This document shows positions 9,405 to 16,666 of a DNA stretch of 35,807 bases, piece by piece. This DNA is from Solirubrobacteraceae bacterium (GTDB taxonomy: Bacteria; Actinomycetota; Thermoleophilia; Solirubrobacterales; Solirubrobacteraceae). A model generated the notes under the pieces. The model did not search any database. It was not told the origin of the DNA and saw nothing but the letters and a program-made list of their open reading frames with translations. Location of the stretch: positions 1 through 35,807 of the forward strand of contig JADGPK010000023.1 of the NCBI GenBank assembly GCA_017882445.1, given 5' to 3'. Each line of letters opens with the position of its first letter. Position 1 is the stretch's first letter. Both the position numbers and the translations under genes were made by a program.

Positions 9405-9583
9405 TTGCCCTCCTCGACCTCGACCAGGTGGCGCACGGCGTGCAGCATGCCGCGAGCCTGATCTGAATCCTTGACCTCGACAGTGTGGCCGATGCGGCGC
9501 AGTCCGAGCGAGCGCAGGGTGTCGAGCTGTTTGTGGTTTGCGCCGTTGCTCGAGCGGCGCTGGGTGACGCTCAGCGCGCCCAT
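9401..9583 (-). CDS. rpmD: 50S ribosomal protein L30
   Basis: L30 is a small single-domain 23S-binding protein. LSVTQRRSSNGANHKQLDTL followed by LGLRRIGHTVEVKD and a C-terminal helix (HAVRHLVEVEE) fits the bacterial L30 fold. At 60 aa it has the usual length. Its ATG shares a base with the rpsE stop (TGATG), and its stop overlaps the rplO GTG. Both overlaps suggest tight coupling within the spc operon. Confidence 0.96.
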   Translation of the reverse strand: MGALSVTQRRSSNGANHKQLDTLRSLGLRRIGHTVEVKDSDQARGMLHAVRHLVEVEEGK

Positions 9584-10197
9584 CAGGCCGACGCCTCCTC
9601 GGCCGCCACGGCTGCCGGCGCTGTCTCTGTGCCCGTCTGCACCGCGGGTACCTCTGGGGCGCCGTTCACCGGCGCGCCGCCGAGACCGAGAACCTGGCTG
9701 ATCGTCAGGCCGCGCAGCGTGGCCATCTCCGCAGGCGTGCGCAGGCCGCGCAGGCCCGCCACCGTGGCCTTGACGAGATTGATCGGGTTCTGCGTGCCAA
9801 GGCTCTTGGAGAGGATGTCGTGGATGCCCGCGAGCTCGAGCACCGCGCGCACGCCTCCGCCGGCGATGACCCCTGTACCGGGCGAGGCGGGCTTGAGCAG
9901 CACACGCCCAGCACCGAAGATCCCGGTCGTCTGGTGGGTGATCGTGCTGCCGTGCTTGGGCACGCGGAAGAGATCCTTCTTCGCCCGCTCCACACCCTTC
10001 TGGATCGCCAGCGGCACCTCGTTGGCCTTGCCGTAGCCGACGCCCACGACTTCCCGTTCGTCGCCGACTACGACCAGGGCGGTGAAGGAGAAGCGCCGGC
10101 CGCCCTTGACGACCTTGGCGACGCGGTTGATCTCGACCACGCGCTCCTGGAGATCCAGGCCGGCTGGGTTGACTGAGCGATCTATGGGTATGGACAT
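9583..10197 (-). CDS. rpsE: 30S ribosomal protein S5 with short C-terminal tail
   Basis: S5 sits at the mRNA entry with S3 and S4 and takes part in fidelity and mRNA unwinding. The S5 N-domain ([20 protein letters not shown], then [21 protein letters not shown]) and C-domain ([43 protein letters not shown]) are canonical. After about residue 172 a 32-residue Ala/Pro/Val/Glu tail follows, rare in other S5 proteins. The 42-bp gap after rplR holds a 5-bp hairpin (10227-10238) and a pyrimidine-rich stretch right before the ATG, so there is no Shine-Dalgarno sequence. Confidence 0.97.
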
Positions 10198-10239
10198 GGT
10201 CAGGAGGGAGAGGGTAGCGGTAGCTGGTGCCTCGGCACG

Positions 10240-10593
10240 CTAGACGGTGATATCCGCCTCGCGGATGGCTTCGGCGAAGGCGCGGACGTGGCCGTGGTAG
10301 CGGTAGCCACCTCGATCGAACACGGCCTCTGAGACTCCCGCCGCCTTGGCGCGCTCGGCGAGCAGCTCACCGGCGCGTTTGGTGCGCTCGGCTTTGCCGA
10401 GCGAGCGCAGCTCCGGCTCATACCAGTTGACGGCCGCGAGTGTGCACGCGCTGACATCGTCGATCAGCTGCGCCGAGAGCCCGCGGTTGGAGCGGAACAC
10501 CGAGATGCGCGGGCGGGCCGCAGTGCCGGAGATCTTCGCCCGCACCCTGCGACGCCGCTTGAGCCGGCGGTTCTCCTTGGTGATGACGCTCAT
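10240..10593 (-). CDS. rplR: 50S ribosomal protein L18
   Basis: L18 binds 5S rRNA in the central protuberance with L5. The basic start (KENRRLKRRRRVRAKISGTA) followed by RPRISVFRSNRGLSAQLIDD and the final FDRGGYRYHGHVRAFAEAIRE is the family signature. Length 117 is normal. A textbook AGGAGGT (10601-10607) lies seven bases before the ATG, one of the strongest ribosome binding sites in the window. It starts 25 bp after rplF. Confidence 0.98.
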   Translation of the reverse strand: MSVITKENRRLKRRRRVRAKISGTAARPRISVFRSNRGLSAQLIDDVSACTLAAVNWYEPELRSLGKAERTKRAGELLAERAKAAGVSEAVFDRGGYRYHGHVRAFAEAIREADITV

Positions 10594-10618
10594 GACGCGA
10601 ACCTCCTGGATGGGGTGC

Positions 10619-11152
10619 TCATGCGCGCTTGCCGACCTTTCTCTGCACGTGCTCGCCCTCGTAGCGGATGCCCTTGCCCTTGTAGGGCTCGGGCGGGCGC
10701 TGCTTGCGGATGATCGCCGCCGTCTCGCCCACGAGCTGCTTGGAGATGCCCTTCACGACCACGCGCGTCGGCTGCGGGACCTCGAATTCGATGCCGTCCG
10801 GCGCTGGGATGGGAACGGGGTGGGAGTACCCCACGGCCAGCTCCAGGTTCTTGCCCTTCAGCTGCGCGCGATAGCCGACGCCCTGGATCTCCAGACGCTT
10901 CTCGTATCCCGCGGTGACGCCCTGGACCATGTTGGCCACGAGCGAGCGTGTCAGGCCGTGCAGCGCACGGTGTTCGCCGCGATCGGTCGGACGCGTGACC
11001 ACCAGCTGGTCACCCTCTTGGGTGACCAGGATATCCCTGTGAACGCGCTCTGCGAGTTCGCCTTTGGGGCCGTTCACGCGGACCTGCTCCGGCTCGATCG
11101 AGACGGTCACGCCGGCGGGCACAGGGATGGGCTGTCTACCTATTCTCGACAT
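10619..11152 (-). CDS. rplF: 50S ribosomal protein L6
   Basis: L6 lies near the factor-binding site of the 50S. Both duplicated L6 domains are visible. [20 protein letters not shown] begins the first, and [21 protein letters not shown] the second. The C-terminal signature [20 protein letters not shown] with a short basic tail completes it. Length 177 is normal. It begins nine bases after the rpsH stop with only a weak GAAG upstream. Confidence 0.98.
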
Positions 11153-11161
11153 CTTCAGAGC

Positions 11162-11569
11162 TCACCAGACCTGCGCCAGGACCTCGCCGCCGATGCCGGC
11201 AGCGCGTGCGTCGTGGCCGGTCATCACGCCGCGTGAAGTCGAGATGATCGACGTTCCCATGCCACCGAGCACCTTGGGTATGTGCGTGGCGTCGACGTAG
11301 GTGCGTCGCCCCGGGCGCGAGACGCGCCGCAACCCCGAGATCGCCGAGCGGCGGTCCTCGGTGTACTTCAGGCGGATCTGGATCAGCTGTCCGGCGCTCC
11401 CCACGGCGGCGTCGATGACCGACCACGAGTCGATGTAGCCCTGCTCGTCCAGGATGCGCGCCAGCTCGCCCTTGAGCTTGGACGCGGGAAGCTCAACGGT
11501 CTCGTGCGACGCGTGGATCGCGTTGCGCACTCGCGTGAGGAAGTCGGCTATGGGATCGGTCATTGACAT
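11162..11569 (-). CDS. rpsH: 30S ribosomal protein S8
   Basis: S8 is a primary 16S binder of the central domain, and in E. coli it represses the spc operon. The sequence MTDPIADFLTRVRNAIHASH, the RPGRRTYV segment and the C-terminal GTSIISTSRGVMTGHDAR (aligned with STSKGVMTxxEAR) are canonical. Two in-frame ATGs lie two codons apart (11569 and 11563); M3 aligns better with other S8 proteins. No Shine-Dalgarno is seen: the preceding 90 bases are A/C-rich in the mRNA. It is separated from rpsZ by an unusual 132-bp gap with a large palindrome. Confidence 0.97.
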   Translation of the reverse strand: MSMTDPIADFLTRVRNAIHASHETVELPASKLKGELARILDEQGYIDSWSVIDAAVGSAGQLIQIRLKYTEDRRSAISGLRRVSRPGRRTYVDATHIPKVLGGMGTSIISTSRGVMTGHDARAAGIGGEVLAQVW

Positions 11570-11662
11570 TGTGTATGTGGGGCTTTCGCGGCCGGTTCTG
11601 TAGGAAGTTCTGGTTGGACGGTGGTGGTGCGTGCGTTGGGGGGTGATTGCCCTTTTGGTGAC

Positions 11663-11686
11663 TCTGTATGACCATGGTCATACAGA
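11663..11686. repeat. Perfect 24-bp palindrome between rpsZ and rpsH
   Basis: Twelve bases, TCTGTATGACCA, are followed immediately by their exact reverse complement. In RNA this gives a 10-bp stem with a 4-base CAUG loop, 16 bases after the rpsZ stop. There is no T-run on either side, so it does not look like an intrinsic terminator. It could be an RNA processing or translational control element, or a protein-binding DNA operator. Confidence 0.85.
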
Positions 11687-11701
11687 TCTACTCGAGAGCT
11701 C

Positions 11702-11887
11702 TTACCAGGACGACTTGGTCATCCCTGGGATGTGACCATTGTGGGCGAGCTCGCGAAGGCAGATGCGGCACACCCCGAACTTCTTGTACACCGCGCGCGG
11801 GCGTCCGCAGCGGGTGCAGCGAGTATAGGCACGTGTCTTGAACTTGGGAGTCCGCGCCTGCTTGACGCGCTGCGAGGTCTTGGCCAT
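11702..11887 (-). CDS. rpsZ: 30S ribosomal protein S14, zinc-binding type (rpsZ/rpsN)
   Basis: S14 belongs to the 30S head. At 61 aa this is the short C+ form: C24-x2-C27-x12-C40-x2-C43 (CTRCG, CRICL) gives a full zinc site. [10 protein letters not shown] and [18 protein letters not shown] are family landmarks. Zinc-limited actinobacteria often keep a second, cysteine-free S14 elsewhere; it is not in this window. The ATG shares a base with the rplE stop (TGATG). Confidence 0.98.
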
Positions 11888-12813
11888 CAGTCGGTGCTCT
11901 CCTTCTCGGTGGTCTGCGCGTCCTGGTCTATTTCCGCGGCTTCCGCCGGCTCCGCTTGGGTCTCGCTCGCTTCGGACTGCGGGCCCTGCGCCTCGGTTTC
12001 CTCGGCCGCCGGCTCGGCCTCTGGCTCGGTCTCCGCGGCCGGCCCGGCCTCGACCTCGGCCTCTGGCTCCGGCCCTGGCTCCGGAGCGGCCTCGGCGGCG
12101 GCCTCGGGTGCAGGCGCGGCGGCGGGCTCCGCCTCGGCCTGCGCCGCCGCGGTCGCAGCTGCGGCCTCGGCCTCGGCCTGCTCGTGAGCGCTTTCGGCTG
12201 CAGCATCCGCCTCGGGGTCGTACCCCTTCGGGCGCCGTTCCGCGGAGAAGGGCAGCCCAAAAGCTGCGAGCAGCGCGTAGGCCTCGATGTCGGTCGAGGC
12301 GCTCGTGGTGATCGTTATGTCCAGACCGCGTACCTGATCGATCGCGTCGTAGTCGACCTCCGGAAAGATGATCTGCTCCTTGACGCCCATCGAGTAGTTG
12401 CCGCGGCCGTCAAACGAACGGGGGTTCAGCCCGCGGAAGTCGCGGATGCGGGGGATCGCGATCGAGACGAGGCGGTCGAGGAACTCATAGGCGCGGTCGG
12501 AGCGCAGCGTGACCGCCACGCCCACCGGCATGCCCTCACGCAGTTTGAACGCCGCGATCGACTTGCGCGCGCGGCGAACGCTCGGCTGCTGGCCGGCGAT
12601 CATCGCCAGCTGATCGGTGGCCGCCTTCAGCATTTTGGAGTCCTGCTTGGCGAGACCCACCCCCATGTTCACGGTGATCTTCTCGAGCTTCGGCGCCTGC
12701 ATCACAGAGGAGTAGCCGAAGCGCGAGATCAGCGCCGGGCGGATCTCCTCCAGATAGCGCGTCTTCAGACGTGCCGTGGGTGCGGTGTCGGTGGTGGTTG
12801 CCATCGTGATCAA
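11887..12813 (-). CDS. rplE: 50S ribosomal protein L5 with 113-residue acidic C-terminal tail
   Basis: L5 binds 5S rRNA in the central protuberance and forms the inter-subunit bridge to S13. The L5 core spans residues 14 to about 195: [52 protein letters not shown], and [20 protein letters not shown]. After [11 protein letters not shown] the chain runs on for 113 residues, almost entirely Ala, Glu and Pro, with a strong negative charge and predicted disorder. Normal L5 is about 180 aa; this one is 308. The reading frame through the tail is uninterrupted, and the stop overlaps the rpsZ start, so the tail is encoded and not a frameshift artefact. The first ATG (12813) overlaps the rplX stop; Met4 is an alternative. 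Confidence 0.95.
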
Positions 12814-13172
12814 TCCAGCCTTGTGCCCGTGCTCTTGGCGACGCGGAAGCGCTGTGAGCCCTCGCGCTCGATCCCCACGCGCGTCGGCTGTCCCTTGGCG
12901 TCCAGGAGCATCACGTTGGACACGTGGATCGGGCCCTCGCGTTCGATCACGCCGCCCATCGCCGCTTCGCTCTGGGCGCCCGCGACCTGGTGGGGGCGGG
13001 TGTGGCGCTTGATCATGTTCAGGCCCTCGACGAACAGCCGCTCTTTGTCGGGGACGACCCGCAGTACGCGGCCGGTCTTGCCGCGATCCTTGCCCGAGAT
13101 CACCTTGACGTTGTCGCCAGAGCGGATCTTGAGCGTGCGGCGCTTGCGGGAAGCGGTGGCGCGAGCCATCAC
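12810..13172 (-). CDS. rplX: 50S ribosomal protein L24
   Basis: L24 initiates 50S assembly and lies near the tunnel exit. The KOW motif [20 protein letters not shown] is clear, followed by [40 protein letters not shown] and [11 protein letters not shown]. Length 120 is in the actinobacterial range, with about 14 extra basic residues at the start ([15 protein letters not shown]). Four-base ATGA overlaps with rplN upstream and rplE downstream show coupling. Confidence 0.98.
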
Positions 13173-13537
13173 AGCACCTCCGGCGCGAGCGAGACGATCT
13201 TCATGAAGTTGCGCTCACGCAGTTCGCGCGCGACCGGACCGAACACACGCGTTCCACGCGGATTGTTCTGGTCGTCGATGATCACCGCCGCGTTCTCGTC
13301 GAACGCGATGTAGGTGCCATCGTCGCGGCCGATCGCCTTCTTGGTGCGGACGATCACAGCCGTCACCACCTCGCCCTTTTTCACCGCACCCTGGGGGTTT
13401 GCCTGCTTGACGGTCGCGGTGATCACGTCGCCGACGAACGCGTAGCGGCGCTTGGAGCCGCCCTTCACGCGGATGCAGAGGATTTCGCGGGCGCCCGAGT
13501 TGTCGGCCACGCGCAGACGTGTCTCGTTCTGGATCAT
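13169..13537 (-). CDS. rplN: 50S ribosomal protein L14
   Basis: L14 lies at the subunit interface. The sequence [56 protein letters not shown], and the end [20 protein letters not shown] is essentially textbook. Length 122 is the standard size, with no extension, in contrast to the adjacent rpsQ. The ATG overlaps the rpsQ stop (ATGA). Confidence 0.99.
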
Positions 13538-14310
13538 CGCGCCCGCTCCAGCACGTCGACGAGCGTCCAGCGCTTCGTGCGTGACAGCGGCCGGCTCTCG
13601 ATCACGCGGACCACATCGCCCTCGTTCGCATCGTTGTTCTCGTCGTGCGCGTGCAGGGTGCTCGAGCTCCGCACGATCTTCTCGTAACGGCGGTGGCGGC
13701 GCGCGACGTCGATCCGCACGGTGATCGTCTTCTCGGCCTTGTCCGAGACCACGACGCCCTGGCGTTCGCGCCGGCGTCCCTCGACGGGAGCGTGCACGGG
13801 TGCCAGCGGCTCCGGCGCCGGCGCCGTCGCGCGGCGCTCGGCCGCCTTCGCGCGTTCCTGCAGCCGCCGCGCGCGGCGGCTGATCGCCTTCTTGCGGCGC
13901 TCCACCACGCGTTCGGCGTGGCGCTCCTCCGCTGACCGCGACGGACGCACCTCGCCGGAGTGCGCTGACCGGGCGGCGCGCCTGCGCTGCTTCGGCGGAA
14001 GCTGTACGACGGGCTCGCTCGCGACGGGCTCGGTCGCAGGAGCGCCGGCGTCCTCGCCGGCCTCAGCCGTCGGCTCGGCCCCAGCGGCAGGCGCGTCGGC
14101 GCCCTGTGCCTCAGGGGCGGCCGGCTCGGTCACCTCAGCCTCGGGAGCGGGGGCCTCGGGCGCCTCAGCCTCGGGAGCGGGGGCCTCGGGCGCCTCAGCC
14201 TCGGGAGCGGGGGCCTCGGGCGCCTCAGCCTCGGGAGCGGGGGTCTCGGGCGCCTGCTCGGTCTCCTCGGGGGGAGTGTCCTGTGTCTCGTTGTCTGGTT
14301 GGTCAGCCAT
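13534..14310 (-). CDS. rpsQ: 30S ribosomal protein S17 with 177-residue N-terminal extension
   Basis: S17 is a primary 16S binder in the 30S body. The S17 core is only the last 80 residues ([20 protein letters not shown], then [20 protein letters not shown] and [20 protein letters not shown]). Ahead of it are two distinct blocks. Residues 1-100 are acidic and rich in Pro, Ala and Glu, with an [10 protein letters not shown] motif repeated in tandem. Residues 107-161 are strongly basic and probably helical ([32 protein letters not shown]). The frame is continuous from an ATG 28 bp after the rpmC stop. An internal start giving a normal-size S17 would need a non-ATG codon near residue 178; no ATG codon lies between residue 1 and the core. 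Known S17 proteins are 80-110 aa. Confidence 0.9.
14131..14250. repeat. Four tandem 30-bp repeats inside rpsQ
   Basis: The unit beginning CGCCTCAGCCTCGGGAGCGG (plus strand) repeats every 30 bp at 14131, 14161, 14191 and 14221. The first copy differs at one base and the last at one base. The length is a multiple of three, so each copy encodes ten residues of the acidic [10 protein letters not shown] segment. Nearly identical DNA copies point to recent expansion by slippage or unequal recombination. Confidence 0.95.
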
Positions 14311-14338
14311 TAGGTCCGTTCATCCTCGTCTGTGAGTC

Positions 14339-14551
14339 TCAGTTGTCCTGCGCGCGCGCCGCGGCGAGCTCGCGTTCGCGGGTGATGGTCAACGCCCGGG
14401 CGAGATCGCGCCTGGCGCGACCCAGACCCGCCGTATCGTCAAGTTCGCCGGTCGCGTTCGAAAAGCGCAGCCCGAACACCTCTTTGCCCAGCTCGGCCAC
14501 CCGCTTGGTCAGCTCGCTGTCGTCCAGGTCGCGTAGTTCGCTCGCTTTCAT
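14339..14551 (-). CDS. rpmC: 50S ribosomal protein L29
   Basis: L29 is a small two-helix protein at the tunnel exit and part of the docking site for trigger factor and SRP. MKASELRDLDDSELTKRVAE, KEVFGLRFSNATGELDDTAG and RRDLARALTITRERELA are family-typical. The ATG at 14549-14551 is chosen because it starts at the MKAxELR motif; TGAGG lies nine bases upstream. A longer open frame upstream overlaps rplP and rpsC in another frame and is not coding. Length 70. It starts 11 bp after the rplP stop. Confidence 0.97.
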   Translation of the reverse strand: MKASELRDLDDSELTKRVAELGKEVFGLRFSNATGELDDTAGLGRARRDLARALTITRERELAAARAQDN

Positions 14552-14562
14552 CGTGAGCAGCC

Positions 14563-14973
14563 TCAGTCCTCGCGCAACACGAACTTGGATTTCAGCGGGA
14601 GCTTGTGCGCGGCAAGCCGAATCGCTTCGCGGGCGAGCGGCTCGGACACGCCGGCCAGCTCGAACATCACCCGTCCGGGCTTGACCACGGCGACCCAGCC
14701 TTCGGGCGAGCCCTTGCCGGAGCCCATGCGGGTCTCGGCCGGCTTCTTGGTCACCGGCTTGTCGGGAAAGACGTTGATCCACACCTTGCCGCCACGCTTG
14801 ATCTTGCGCGTCATCGCCACACGTGCGGCCTCGATCTGGCGGTTGGTCAGCCAGCCGCACTCGAGCGCCTTCAGGCCATACTCGCCGAACTGCACATGCA
14901 GCTGGCCGCGCGAGGTGCCACGACGGCGTCCGCGGTGCTGCTTGCGGTGCTTGACGCGCTTGGGGGACAGCAT
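14563..14973 (-). CDS. rplP: 50S ribosomal protein L16
   Basis: L16 lies near the A-site tRNA elbow and is required for late 50S assembly. [80 protein letters not shown] and KLPLKSKFV are all canonical. Length 136 is normal. The ATG shares a base with the rpsC stop (TGATG), so its translation is coupled to that of the Gly-rich tail of S3. Confidence 0.99.
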
Positions 14974-15905
14974 CAGCGTCCACCTCCGCCGCCCGCGCCG
15001 CCGCCGCCCGGACGGGGACCACGTCCGCCGCCACCGGGCCCGCGAGCGCCGCCGCGGCCACCGCCACCTGGACCACCAGGACCACCAGGACCGCCGGGGC
15101 CGCGTCCACGTCCACCGCCACCGGGACCGCCGCCGCCCGGACCGCCGCCGCCTCTGCCGCTTGCGCCGGCGCGCCCCCGACCTCGTCCGTCGCGACCGTC
15201 GCGACCACCGCGACCGTCACGGTCGGAGCTCGGCGGAGGGGGCGCGGTCATGTCGGTCAGGTCAGCGCCCGTGTAGCCCTCGGGCATGATTTCGCCCTTG
15301 TTGACCCAGCACTTCACGCCGATGCGTCCGAAGGTGGTGCGCGCCTCATAGAAGCCGTAGTCGATGTCCGCGCGCATCGTGTGCAGCGGCACGCGCCCGT
15401 CGGAGTAGCTTTCGGTGCGGGCCATCTCGGCGCCGCCGAGGCGCCCGGCTACCTGAACCTTGACGCCCTTGGCGCCAGAGCGCATGGCGCTGGTCAGCGC
15501 GCGCTTCATCGCGCGGCGGAAGGCCACGCGGTTCTGGAGCTGCTCGGCGATCGACTGTGCCACGAGCTTGGCGTCCAGCTCGGGGCGCTTGATCTCGAGG
15601 ATGTTGACCTTGATCTGCTTCTTGGTCATGCGGTGCAGGTCGCGTCGTAGCGCGTCCACTTCGGTCCCGGACTTGCCGATCACGATGCCCGGTCGGGCAG
15701 TGTGGATGTTGACCTCGAGCTCGTTGGCGTCCTTGCGGATCGTGATGTCCGAAAGGCCCGCGTGGGCGAGCTTCTTGATGATGTGCTCACGCACACGCAC
15801 GTCCTCGGCGAGATATTCCGCGAAGTTCTTCTCGTTGAACCAGTTGGACTTCCAGTCGTGGATGTAACCCACGCGCATGGCCTCTGGATGAACCTTTTGT
15901 CCCAT
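14973..15905 (-). CDS. rpsC: 30S ribosomal protein S3 with Gly/Arg-rich C-terminal tail
   Basis: S3 lies at the mRNA entry of the 30S head and, with S4 and S5, forms the ribosomal helicase. The core (residues 1 to about 217) starts [20 protein letters not shown] and has the KH-domain loop [20 protein letters not shown] and the C-domain [20 protein letters not shown]. From residue about 222 to 310 the chain is almost only Gly, Arg, Pro, Asp and Ala (for example [15 protein letters not shown], then runs of GGPGG), resembling RGG-box RNA-binding tails. Normal S3 is 210-240 aa. The frame is uninterrupted up to the rplP overlap. Such a tail could touch incoming mRNA; that is inference. Confidence 0.96.
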
Positions 15906-15916
15906 TTCTCAGTCTC

Positions 15917-16666
15917 TCAGCCGTGTCTCTTGGTTGTCCCGGGCTCGGGCCGCGGGGTTAGCGTGATCGTCAGGTGGCTCGTGCGCTTGCGGATCGGGGT
16001 CGCGCGTCCCATCGCGCGCGGCCGGAAGCGCTTGATCGTCGGCCCTTCGTCGGCGTAGGCCTCCCGGACGATCAGATCATCTTCGAGCAACTCGTGGTTG
16101 CTCTCGGCGTTGGCCACCGCGGACTCGAGCAGCTTGCTCCAGTCGCGCGCCACCTCACGAGGGGTGAAAGCGAGGATAGCGCGTGCCTCCTGCACCGACT
16201 TGCCGCGCAGGTGCCCACAGACCATCCGCGCCTTGCGAGCCGAGGTGCGCACGTAGCGGGCGTGCGCACGTACGACCCTGCGACGCGGCGCTTTCGCTGC
16301 GGCTTTGGACGCTTTGCGCGAGGAGGCGCCACGCTCGGCCTGCTTGTCGGCGGCCTTCTCGCCGACCGGCTTCTTGGCCGACGCCGCTTTCCTGGCTGAC
16401 GCCGCTTTCTTGGGCGCGGCCGGCTTATCGGCGGACGCCGTCTCGGCGGTCGCTTTCGCAGCCGCCGCTTTCTTGGCGGGCGCTTTCTTGGCCGTGGCGG
16501 CCTTCTCGCCGCCGGCCTTCGCCGCCGTGGGCTGCTGCGCGGTCGCCTCGGCGTCGGCGACTCTTGGAGCGCGCGCTGGTTTGGCGGTCGCTTTGCCCGC
16601 GGCAGGCGTCTGCGGCGTTGCGTCCGCGGCGCCCTCCGGCGGATCGGCGGGGGTCTCGGCGCTCAT
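15917..16666 (-). CDS. rplV: 50S ribosomal protein L22 with 130-residue Lys/Ala-rich N-terminal extension
   Basis: L22 lines the peptide exit tunnel and shows on the solvent side near its mouth. The core (residues about 131-249) has [55 protein letters not shown] and the tunnel-loop region [20 protein letters not shown]. Residues 1-130 are Ala, Lys, Pro, Thr and Glu with KKAxAKKA-like patterns that recall histone-H1-type tails. Typical L22 is 110-130 aa; this is 249. The start [10 protein letters not shown] at 16666 forms an ATGA overlap with the rpsS stop, which fixes it firmly. A longer upstream frame is only the shadow of rpsS. Confidence 0.94.

What the first reader, a model, noticed from the sequence alone, without database searches (positions are those of the whole stretch)
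9583..16666. Cluster of ribosomal proteins with long, charge-segregated disordered arms
Within 7 kb, L22, S3, S17, L5 and S5 all carry extra low-complexity segments that together add about 540 residues. L22 is Lys-rich, S3 Arg/Gly-rich, S17 acidic then basic, L5 acidic. Their frames are intact and their ends are fixed by overlapping start/stop codons. Interleaved normal-length proteins (L14, L24, L16, S19, L29, L6, L18) show that this is not annotation drift. Opposite charges raise the possibility that the arms attract each other between subunits or ribosomes, or bind RNA. I infer a lineage-specific ribosome remodelling; the role is unknown.
Basis: partly seen in the sequence, partly recalled or inferred. 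Interest (0 to 1): 0.78.

Follow-up and report, generated by a model that had tools for sequence, protein, structure and literature searches.

The report
Ribosomal proteins with long charged arms
In this bacterium and its order several ribosomal proteins carry long extra arms, many of them acidic and some built on conserved helices or short motifs, so its ribosome probably wears a charged fringe that better-studied bacterial ribosomes show in shorter form.

Summary
In detail: L22, S3, S17, L5 and S5 carry 129, 80, 176, 117 and 32 extra residues (534). They are not errors: arms of 40+ residues sit on the same ends across the order (S17 in 70 of 70 genomes, L22 51 of 65, S3 45 of 67, L5 39 of 69, S5 38 of 69) and show protein-level constraint (pooled dN/dS 0.11-0.33). 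Two things change. The cluster limits are arbitrary: S2, S9, L10 and L19 in the same genome also have acidic arms of 103-178 residues; eleven arms sum to 1165 residues, net charge -146. And the arms are not only disorder: S17 has a conserved basic helix, relatives' L5 a conserved helix that this genus lacks, S9 a PGA[D/H]LE motif. Opposite-charge attraction is not supported: L22 arms are basic in 22 of 51, and charges do not compensate on the tree. Most likely: anchoring straps plus an acidic fringe; the function is inferred. Shorter extensions on the same proteins are known from Mycobacterium and Cutibacterium, so this is an extreme variant of a known kind.

The parts
15917..16666 (-). rplV, ribosomal protein L22, 249 aa; Pfam PF00237 at residues 134-236
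16280..16666 (-). L22 N-terminal arm, 129 aa, Ala/Lys-rich, net +15; ATG overlaps the S19 stop
14973..15905 (-). rpsC, ribosomal protein S3, 310 aa
14973..15215 (-). S3 C-terminal arm, 80 aa, Gly/Arg-rich, net +12 (plus stop)
13534..14310 (-). rpsQ, ribosomal protein S17, 258 aa
14011..14310 (-). S17 distal arm, residues 1-100, acidic (-28), predicted disordered (ten-residue block pLDDT 44-59)
13783..14010 (-). S17 proximal arm, residues 101-176, basic (+13), with predicted helices 106-116 and 127-162 (block pLDDT up to 98) and an order-wide motif
14125..14255 (-). 30-bp tandem repeat, 4.4 copies, encoding [10 protein letters not shown] units in the S17 acidic arm
11887..12804 (-). rplE, ribosomal protein L5, 305 aa
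11887..12240 (-). L5 C-terminal arm, 117 aa, Glu/Ala/Pro-rich, net -30 (plus stop); the ALEQLKEENPEAY module of relatives is absent
9583..10197 (-). rpsE, ribosomal protein S5, 204 aa
9583..9681 (-). S5 C-terminal arm, 32 aa, net -4 (plus stop)

Best explanation
These are real terminal arms of otherwise ordinary ribosomal proteins, part of an order-wide remodelling of the ribosome that in this genome involves about ten proteins. The plan I read in them is core, then an anchoring segment, then a long disordered tail that is acidic in most arms. The anchor is a basic helix in S17, a conserved helix in relatives' L5, a charged helix-like repeat in S2, and a basic proximal stretch in L22. I propose that the anchors lie on rRNA or neighbouring proteins as straps, as shorter extensions of the same proteins do in Cutibacterium and Mycobacterium ribosomes, while the acidic tails reach into solvent. 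There they would shield the basic anchors during assembly and keep ribosomes and subunits from sticking to RNA and to each other. Shown here: the arms, their reading frames, the conserved S17 layout, the non-random acidity of L5 and S5 arms, conserved motifs, and predicted helices. Inferred: that the arms are in the mature ribosome, their placement, solvent exposure and the shielding role.
For: Same ends armed across the order; SecY and RpoA, coded between them, have 1 of 69 and 0 of 55. dN/dS of arms 0.11-0.33 pooled over 16 close pairs, cores 0.06-0.14. Net charge not a by-product of the DNA: L5 and S5 arms of 40+ aa are more acidic than their own shuffled DNA in 39 of 39 and 38 of 38 genomes, S17 67 of 70, while shuffled DNA and other frames read basic on average; L5 and S5 arms of 40+ aa are negative in 39 of 39 and 38 of 38. 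S17 arm: 25-50 aa from the core positive in 68 of 68, beyond 75 aa negative in 97% and never positive. AlphaFold2: S17 residues 127-162 a confident helix, 1-100 below 60; L5 of a relative (L134): helix 199-232, then low confidence. S9 arms negative in 29 of 29, S2 arms in 30 of 30. Eleven own arms sum to 1165 aa and -146. Placement by analogy: C. acnes uS17 N-extension in the major groove of h9, uL22 N-extension anchoring H2/H24/H46/H19, uL5 C-extension traced between H84 and H38 (PMC10085706: section 17 read, other passages seen).
Against: No structure, proteomics or mutant of this lineage was available. S3 and L22 arms do not fit an acidic fringe: S3 arms are basic in 42 of 45, L22 arms take either sign, and S3 arms are below their shuffled-DNA charge in only 28 of 45, L22 in 40 of 51. 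L22 and S3 arms show no motif above shuffled controls and S5 only 21 against 20, so they may be loosely constrained filler. Single S5 arm pairs reach dN/dS 1.30, and one had no finite dS. Lengths change fast (L5 arm 117 in the window, 187 in a genus mate, 18-43 in three others), and 30 of 69 order genomes have an L5 arm under 40 aa, so of the five only S17's is constant. The L5 anchor helix is missing in this genus. Amino-acid alignment of repetitive arms tends to lower dN and raise dS. In C. acnes the uL22 C-extension was visible, not disordered, so far parts are not always free.
Confidence: 0.5

Rival explanations
1. Specific docking: the conserved motifs (S9 PGA[D/H]LE, L5 ALEQLKEENPEAY, S17 basic helix, S2 charged helix) bind order-specific partners such as initiation, hibernation or assembly factors, and the low-complexity stretches are tethers.
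For: PGxxLE in 21 of 28 S9 arms against a shuffled maximum of 14-15; RxxxRxxKA in 51 of 70 S17 arms against 25-26; L5 module nearly identical in 24 of 69 order genomes. In C. acnes S9 sits above the mRNA exit and S3, S4 and S5 surround the mRNA entrance.
Against: No partner was looked for. Motif scans used related genomes, so shared ancestry inflates counts; the L5 module is found in only 3 of 35 genomes of the window's family.
Confidence: 0.25
2. Nearly neutral growth: arms lengthen by slippage in GC-rich DNA and are tolerated because they point into solvent.
For: Tandem repeats in S17, S3, L5 and L22 arms and in the S2 arm; fast length change; higher dN/dS than cores, up to 1.30 in single S5 pairs; outside the class GC and five-arm length correlate (rho 0.53); no clear motif in L22, S3 and S5 arms.
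Against: dN/dS well under 1 in nearly gap-free pairs (L109-L110 L22 arm 0.05); acidity of L5, S5 and S17 arms opposite to what the DNA composition gives; conserved blocks in S17, S9 and L5; the 12 other named loci with GC >= 0.65 have five-arm totals of at most 107.
Confidence: 0.15
3. Opposite charges: basic L22/S3 arms and acidic L5/S17/S5 arms attract each other between subunits or ribosomes.
For: Raw anticorrelation of L22 and L5 arm charge, rho -0.49 in 62 genomes; tree-corrected r -0.23 with p 0.026 in 92 class genomes, before correction for 36 pairs.
Against: Tree-corrected p 0.07 in the order; no compensation of total charge on the tree (ratio 1.18); L22 arm basic in only 22 of 51; acidic residues far outnumber basic ones once S2, S9, L10 and L19 are counted.
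Confidence: 0.07
4. Artefact: wrong starts, frameshifts or assembly errors.
For: Genome is a 234-contig draft; the S17 5' end is not fixed by overlap.
Against: S17 arms of 64-195 aa in eight single-contig genomes (L086, L091, L097, L101, L108, L115, L118, L137), with L22 arms of 83 aa or more in seven of them; coding-type substitution pattern in arms (codon positions 0.148, 0.142, 0.382).
Confidence: 0.03

Closest known systems
Ribosomal protein extensions of Mycobacterium smegmatis (PMC3286452; passages with Table 1 seen)
   Same: S2, S3, S5, S9, S17, L4 and L22 extended; extra density seen on the 30S and around the tunnel exit
   Different: There S17 +14, L22 +43, S3 +42, S9 +20, S2 +36, with S16 +74, L17 +72 and L25 +121; here S17 +176, L22 +129, S9 +178, S2 +175, L5 +117, and S16 and L17 not extended; L25 not examined
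Cutibacterium acnes 70S extensions (PMC10085706; section 17 read, other passages seen)
   Same: uS5, uS9, uS17, uL22, uL4 and uL5 extended; near parts of uS17, uL22 and uL5 on rRNA; most of the uS9 extension and the uL4 one disordered
   Different: Shorter where a length is given in what I saw (uS9 46, uL22 C 43, uL5 31), except uL4 (+100; here N 9, C 11); no acidic-tail set reported in what I read
Disordered extensions of core ribosomal proteins used in 50S assembly (PMC2672003; passages)
   Same: Disordered until bound; the L20 extension makes a coil-to-helix change in a conserved basic cluster, which the S17 helix may resemble
   Different: Those penetrate the subunit core and are basic; most arms here are acidic and terminal
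Acidic tails of histone and ribosomal protein chaperones (recalled, not tested)
   Same: Acidic disordered tails shielding basic partners
   Different: Here the tails are part of the ribosomal proteins themselves

Membership tests
Universal ribosomal proteins uL22, uS3, uS17, uL5, uS5 | Conserved core over the Pfam cut-off | tested here: met
   PF00237, PF00189/PF07650, PF00366, PF00281/PF00673, PF00333/PF03719 all over cut-off
Universal ribosomal proteins uL22, uS3, uS17, uL5, uS5 | Place in the S10-spc gene order | tested here: met
Lineage-specific extensions of actinobacterial ribosomal proteins | Extension on the same protein and the same end as in M. smegmatis or C. acnes | tested here: met
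   S17 N, S3 C, S9 N, S2 C, L5 C and S5 against passages; the papers give L22 at both ends, here mainly N (129; C 10)
Lineage-specific extensions of actinobacterial ribosomal proteins | Sequence homology of the extensions themselves | tested here: inconclusive
   Of S17 and L22 searched, M. tuberculosis S17 aligns weakly well beyond the core (query 132-258 to chain 11-135); low complexity. S3, L5 and S5 not searched
Lineage-specific extensions of actinobacterial ribosomal proteins | Near part seen on rRNA, far part disordered, in a ribosome structure | not testable with these tools
   Only predictions: S17 helix and disordered tail, L5 helix in a relative
Acidic tail acting as built-in chaperone (works like) | Acidic, disordered, next to a basic segment | tested here: met
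   S17: distal acidic, proximal basic in 68 arms; predicted disorder. L5 and S5 arms are acidic without a basic segment
Acidic tail acting as built-in chaperone (works like) | Prevents aggregation or off-target RNA binding | not tested
   needs experiment

The most novel reading that the evidence does not exclude
A bacterial order has rebuilt its ribosome surface into a polyanionic fringe (in this genome about 1165 arm residues, net -146, on 42 ribosomal proteins examined). It carries conserved docking sites (S17 basic helix, S9 PGA[D/H]LE, L5 ALEQLKEENPEAY in relatives) for partners not yet known. It would be a bacterial counterpart of eukaryotic ribosomal protein tails that controls assembly, ribosome spacing or factor recruitment.
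Probability: 0.25. Interest if true: 0.75.

Novelty: new variant of a known kind. Interest (0 to 1): 0.5.

Why it matters
Bacterial ribosomes are usually taken as minimal. A bacterial order whose ribosomal proteins gained long, mostly acidic arms (over a thousand residues in this genome), with conserved motifs hidden in fast-changing tails, would give a natural experiment on what ribosome surface tails do, and names three short sequences that can be tested directly. It also matters for annotation: N-terminal arms of S17, L22 and S9 are easily cut off by start-site prediction. My paper searches found shorter extensions in other actinobacteria but no account of these arms in this class. Searches naming Thermoleophilia or Solirubrobacter with ribosomal proteins and extensions gave: 258 papers holding two of three terms, 15 listed, none of the 15 mentioning Thermoleophilia, no paper, four papers, none on the subject by title and start of abstract (passages of one seen). 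The paper on Thermoleophilia markers gave, in the two passages I saw, a one-residue S10 insertion as the ribosomal protein marker. That the class is Thermoleophilia rests on recall of where Solirubrobacterales belong.

Tried and rejected
Charge compensation between arms was tested with tree-corrected contrasts and rejected as a general rule. GC content as the whole cause was rejected. Frameshift, start and assembly artefacts were judged unlikely. The L5 module of relatives was sought elsewhere in the own genome: no match at E <= 1; the answer itself warns that an empty answer without a control shows nothing, and none was run. Motif scans of the L22 and S3 arms gave nothing above shuffled controls, S5 21 against a control maximum of 20 (three shuffles per set). 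PDB sequence searches with S17 and L22 brought alignments of the cores, apart from the weak M. tuberculosis S17 extension and, at lower rank, some organellar chains. Weak points of the counts: the 100 regions were chosen by me from the positions printed (183 of 199 genomes with a match, list cut; 109 of 121), favouring contigs that hold the operon; counts then drop genomes with a missing gene or cut contig (for all five arms 62 of 71 order genomes). The start rule (first ATG/GTG after the upstream stop) is uncertain where no upstream gene is known, so S10 N extensions in 8 of 64 are not trusted. L113 has an ill-aligned L22 core start and L098 an unread stretch in S3; both were kept. The close pairs were picked by eye from the tree, arms under 15 aligned codons skipped. 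S9 and S2 arms were read in the best-scoring loci only (31 of each, one of them the own genome). The L10 arm start was set by eye. The tree is FastTree, printed without support values.
Full report
WHAT IS THERE. The window is a whole 35,807-base contig of a 3.27-Mb draft genome (contig length also). It carries the S10-spc-alpha ribosomal protein genes on the - strand. Measured against profiles built from E. coli K-12 (locus) and class orthologues, the extra residues are: L22 N 129, S3 C 80, S17 N 176, L5 C 117, S5 C 32, total 534. Pfam recognises each core and lists nothing in the arms. The other ribosomal proteins of the cluster have extensions of at most 11 residues.

WHOSE IT IS. The closest named relative by S3 is a Solirubrobacterales draft genome (L002, 84% identity). 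Its contig length, 258,914, is that of G071 contig 3 (L089), which the genome tool places in the window's own family. In a tree of 109 taxa the window groups with its genus mates inside that family, and family f5 contains a named Miltoncostaeales genome.

HOW WIDESPREAD. I fetched 100 operon regions of the class. With the window, 71 genomes are of the own order. There, arms of 40 aa or more occur on S17 N in 70 of 70, L22 N in 51 of 65, S3 C in 45 of 67, L5 C in 39 of 69 and S5 C in 38 of 69 readable genes. Other ends in the cluster: S10 N 8 of 64 (start uncertain), L4 C 5 of 66, L15 N 3 of 69, S13 N 2 of 62, single cases in L3, S11 (both ends) and S4, none in the rest; SecY and RpoA 1 of 69 and 0 of 55. 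In the other families of the class f7 shares long S17 and S3 arms, f8 has almost none, and other ends are used: L4 N in f6 and f9, L22 C in f7, f10 and f11, long L4 C in three of seven f5 genomes. The five-arm total has a median of 385.5 in 62 order genomes, 129.5 in 30 other class genomes and 37 in 59 other named genomes, whose maximum is 107. The last set was chosen by similarity to S3, so it is a comparison and not a census. It also shows that long arms on other ends occur elsewhere: L009, labelled Propionibacteriaceae, has 416 residues over 13 ends, with L22 C 102, L4 C 122 and L17 C 71.

NOT ONLY THIS CLUSTER. Seventeen further E. coli ribosomal proteins, used as one query, were all found in the own genome. 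S2 has a C-terminal arm of 175 aa (-26), S9 an N-terminal arm of 178 (-44) whose ATG overlaps the L13 stop, L10 a C-terminal arm of about 111 (-29), L19 103 (-22), S6 28 (-7), L21 36 (+4), and S18 about 17 and 16. L11, L1, S7, S12, L13, S16, L9, L27, L20 and S15 have none or only a few residues. Eleven arms sum to 1165 residues and net -146, while the five in the finding sum to -22. S9 and S2 arms recur in the order: 29 S9 arms with the start limited by L13 have a median of 139 aa and -36, none positive, range 19-198 aa; 30 S2 arms have a median of 103 aa and are all negative (31 loci read for each, the best-scoring of 60 and 59 matching genomes of 61).

ARE THEY PROTEIN? In 16 close pairs pooled dN/dS of arms is 0.33 (L22), 0.11 (S3), 0.28 (S17), 0.23 (L5) and 0.30 (S5), cores 0.06-0.14; codon positions differ at 0.148, 0.142 and 0.382 in arms. 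Single pairs vary, S5 arms up to 1.30. Alignment of repeats biases this downward, but nearly gap-free pairs agree (L109-L110 L22 arm, 90 codons, 2 gaps, 0.05). The L5 and S5 arms are more acidic than their own shuffled DNA in 39 of 39 and 38 of 38 genomes and S17 in 67 of 70, although shuffled DNA and other frames read basic on average; for L22 it is 40 of 51 and for S3 28 of 45. I read this as selection on charge in the acidic arms at least.

NOT ONLY DISORDER. The S17 arm has a constant layout: 25-50 aa from the core it is positive in 68 of 68 arms of 60 aa or more, beyond 75 aa negative in 97% and never positive. The basic part carries a motif (RxxxRxxKA in 51 of 70, shuffled maximum 26; consensus). 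AlphaFold2 with 69 sequences gives the window's S17 a helix at 127-162 with block pLDDT up to 98, while residues 1-100 stay below 60. In 24 of 69 order genomes the L5 arm holds a nearly identical segment ending ALEQLKEENPEAY (f2 13 of 19, f3 8 of 12, f1 3 of 35, f4 0 of 3). In one such protein (L134) it is predicted as a confident helix, 199-232, followed by low-confidence acidic tail. The five genomes of the window's genus lack it; the window has a plain acidic tail instead. S9 arms share PGxxLE in 21 of 28 (shuffled maximum 14-15). L22 and S3 arms show no motif above control, S5 21 against 20.

CHARGES. L22 arms of 40+ aa run from -30 to +25 in the order; 22 of 51 are positive. S3 arms are positive in 42 of 45, L5 and S5 arms in 0 of 39 and 0 of 38. 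L22 charge is anticorrelated with L5 charge in raw data (rho -0.49), but tree-corrected r is -0.23 (p 0.07; p 0.026 in the class, without correction for 36 pairs). S17 and L5 charges go together (r 0.25, p 0.048). Summed charge shows no compensation on the tree (ratio 1.18 against 1.0), though its raw spread is a little below that of independent arms (21.7 against 24.2). I therefore do not keep the attraction idea, but a weak L22-L5 link is not excluded.

HOW IT PROBABLY WORKS. Cryo-EM of Cutibacterium acnes, as described in the section and passages I read (PMC10085706), shows extensions of uS17 on h9, of uL22 (N) on H2/H24/H46/H19 and of uL5 between H84 and H38, with 39 residues of uS9 and the uL4 extension disordered; the uL22 C-extension was visible. 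M. smegmatis has a similar list (PMC3286452 Table 1). By that analogy the near parts of the arms here should be straps on rRNA or neighbouring proteins. The distal acidic tails, longer than the lengths I saw given for those species, should project into solvent. Their non-random acidity suggests shielding of the basic straps during assembly and repulsion between ribosomes or from RNA. This last step is inference (0.5). The chief rival is that the conserved motifs dock order-specific factors (0.25).

NOVELTY. Extensions on these proteins are known in kind. The size, the acidic set and the conserved motifs inside fast-changing arms are what appears new, within the limits of my ten counted paper searches (27 and 76 held no paper; one search failed).

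Noticed in passing
window 11663-11686: Perfect 24-bp palindrome TCTGTATGACCATGGTCATACAGA in a 132-nt gap between S14 and S8; 75 of 92 class regions have a 0-19 nt gap there, and a genus mate (L082) keeps a degenerate copy. The inner 20 bp occurs at 7 places in the genome with up to 3 mismatches, 0 in the reversed control. It looks like an operator of a dimeric regulator; the regulator was not identified.
   Followed up: partly
L214 (own genome, contig 17), S9 N-terminal arm: The S9 acidic arm holds a near-duplicate 26-residue unit, HAVPTxEAxxIAGSxEDAALEAAQEA, twice, besides the order-wide PGA[D/H]LE motif.
   Followed up: partly
L209 (own genome, contig 212), S2 C-terminal arm: S2 ends in a charged helix-like repeat (EEQAKREAEEQAKKEVEEQ) and then three copies of EQTPDAPEPAASEAP; a charged repeat of this kind begins most of the 11 relatives' arms printed.
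   Followed up: partly
L155 and L159-L161 (other orders of the class): In other orders of the class L4 takes very long arms: 183 aa, net -56, at the C end in L155, and 158-177 aa at the N end in the three f6 genomes.
   Followed up: no
L009 (locus labelled Propionibacteriaceae): An actinobacterial draft outside the class with 416 arm residues over 13 ends, on L22 C, L4 C and L17 C rather than on S17 and L5.
   Followed up: no
L005 record title: A public draft labelled Bifidobacterium breve groups with Miltoncostaeales in the tree, so its label looks wrong; L024 bears the same label and was not placed.
   Followed up: no
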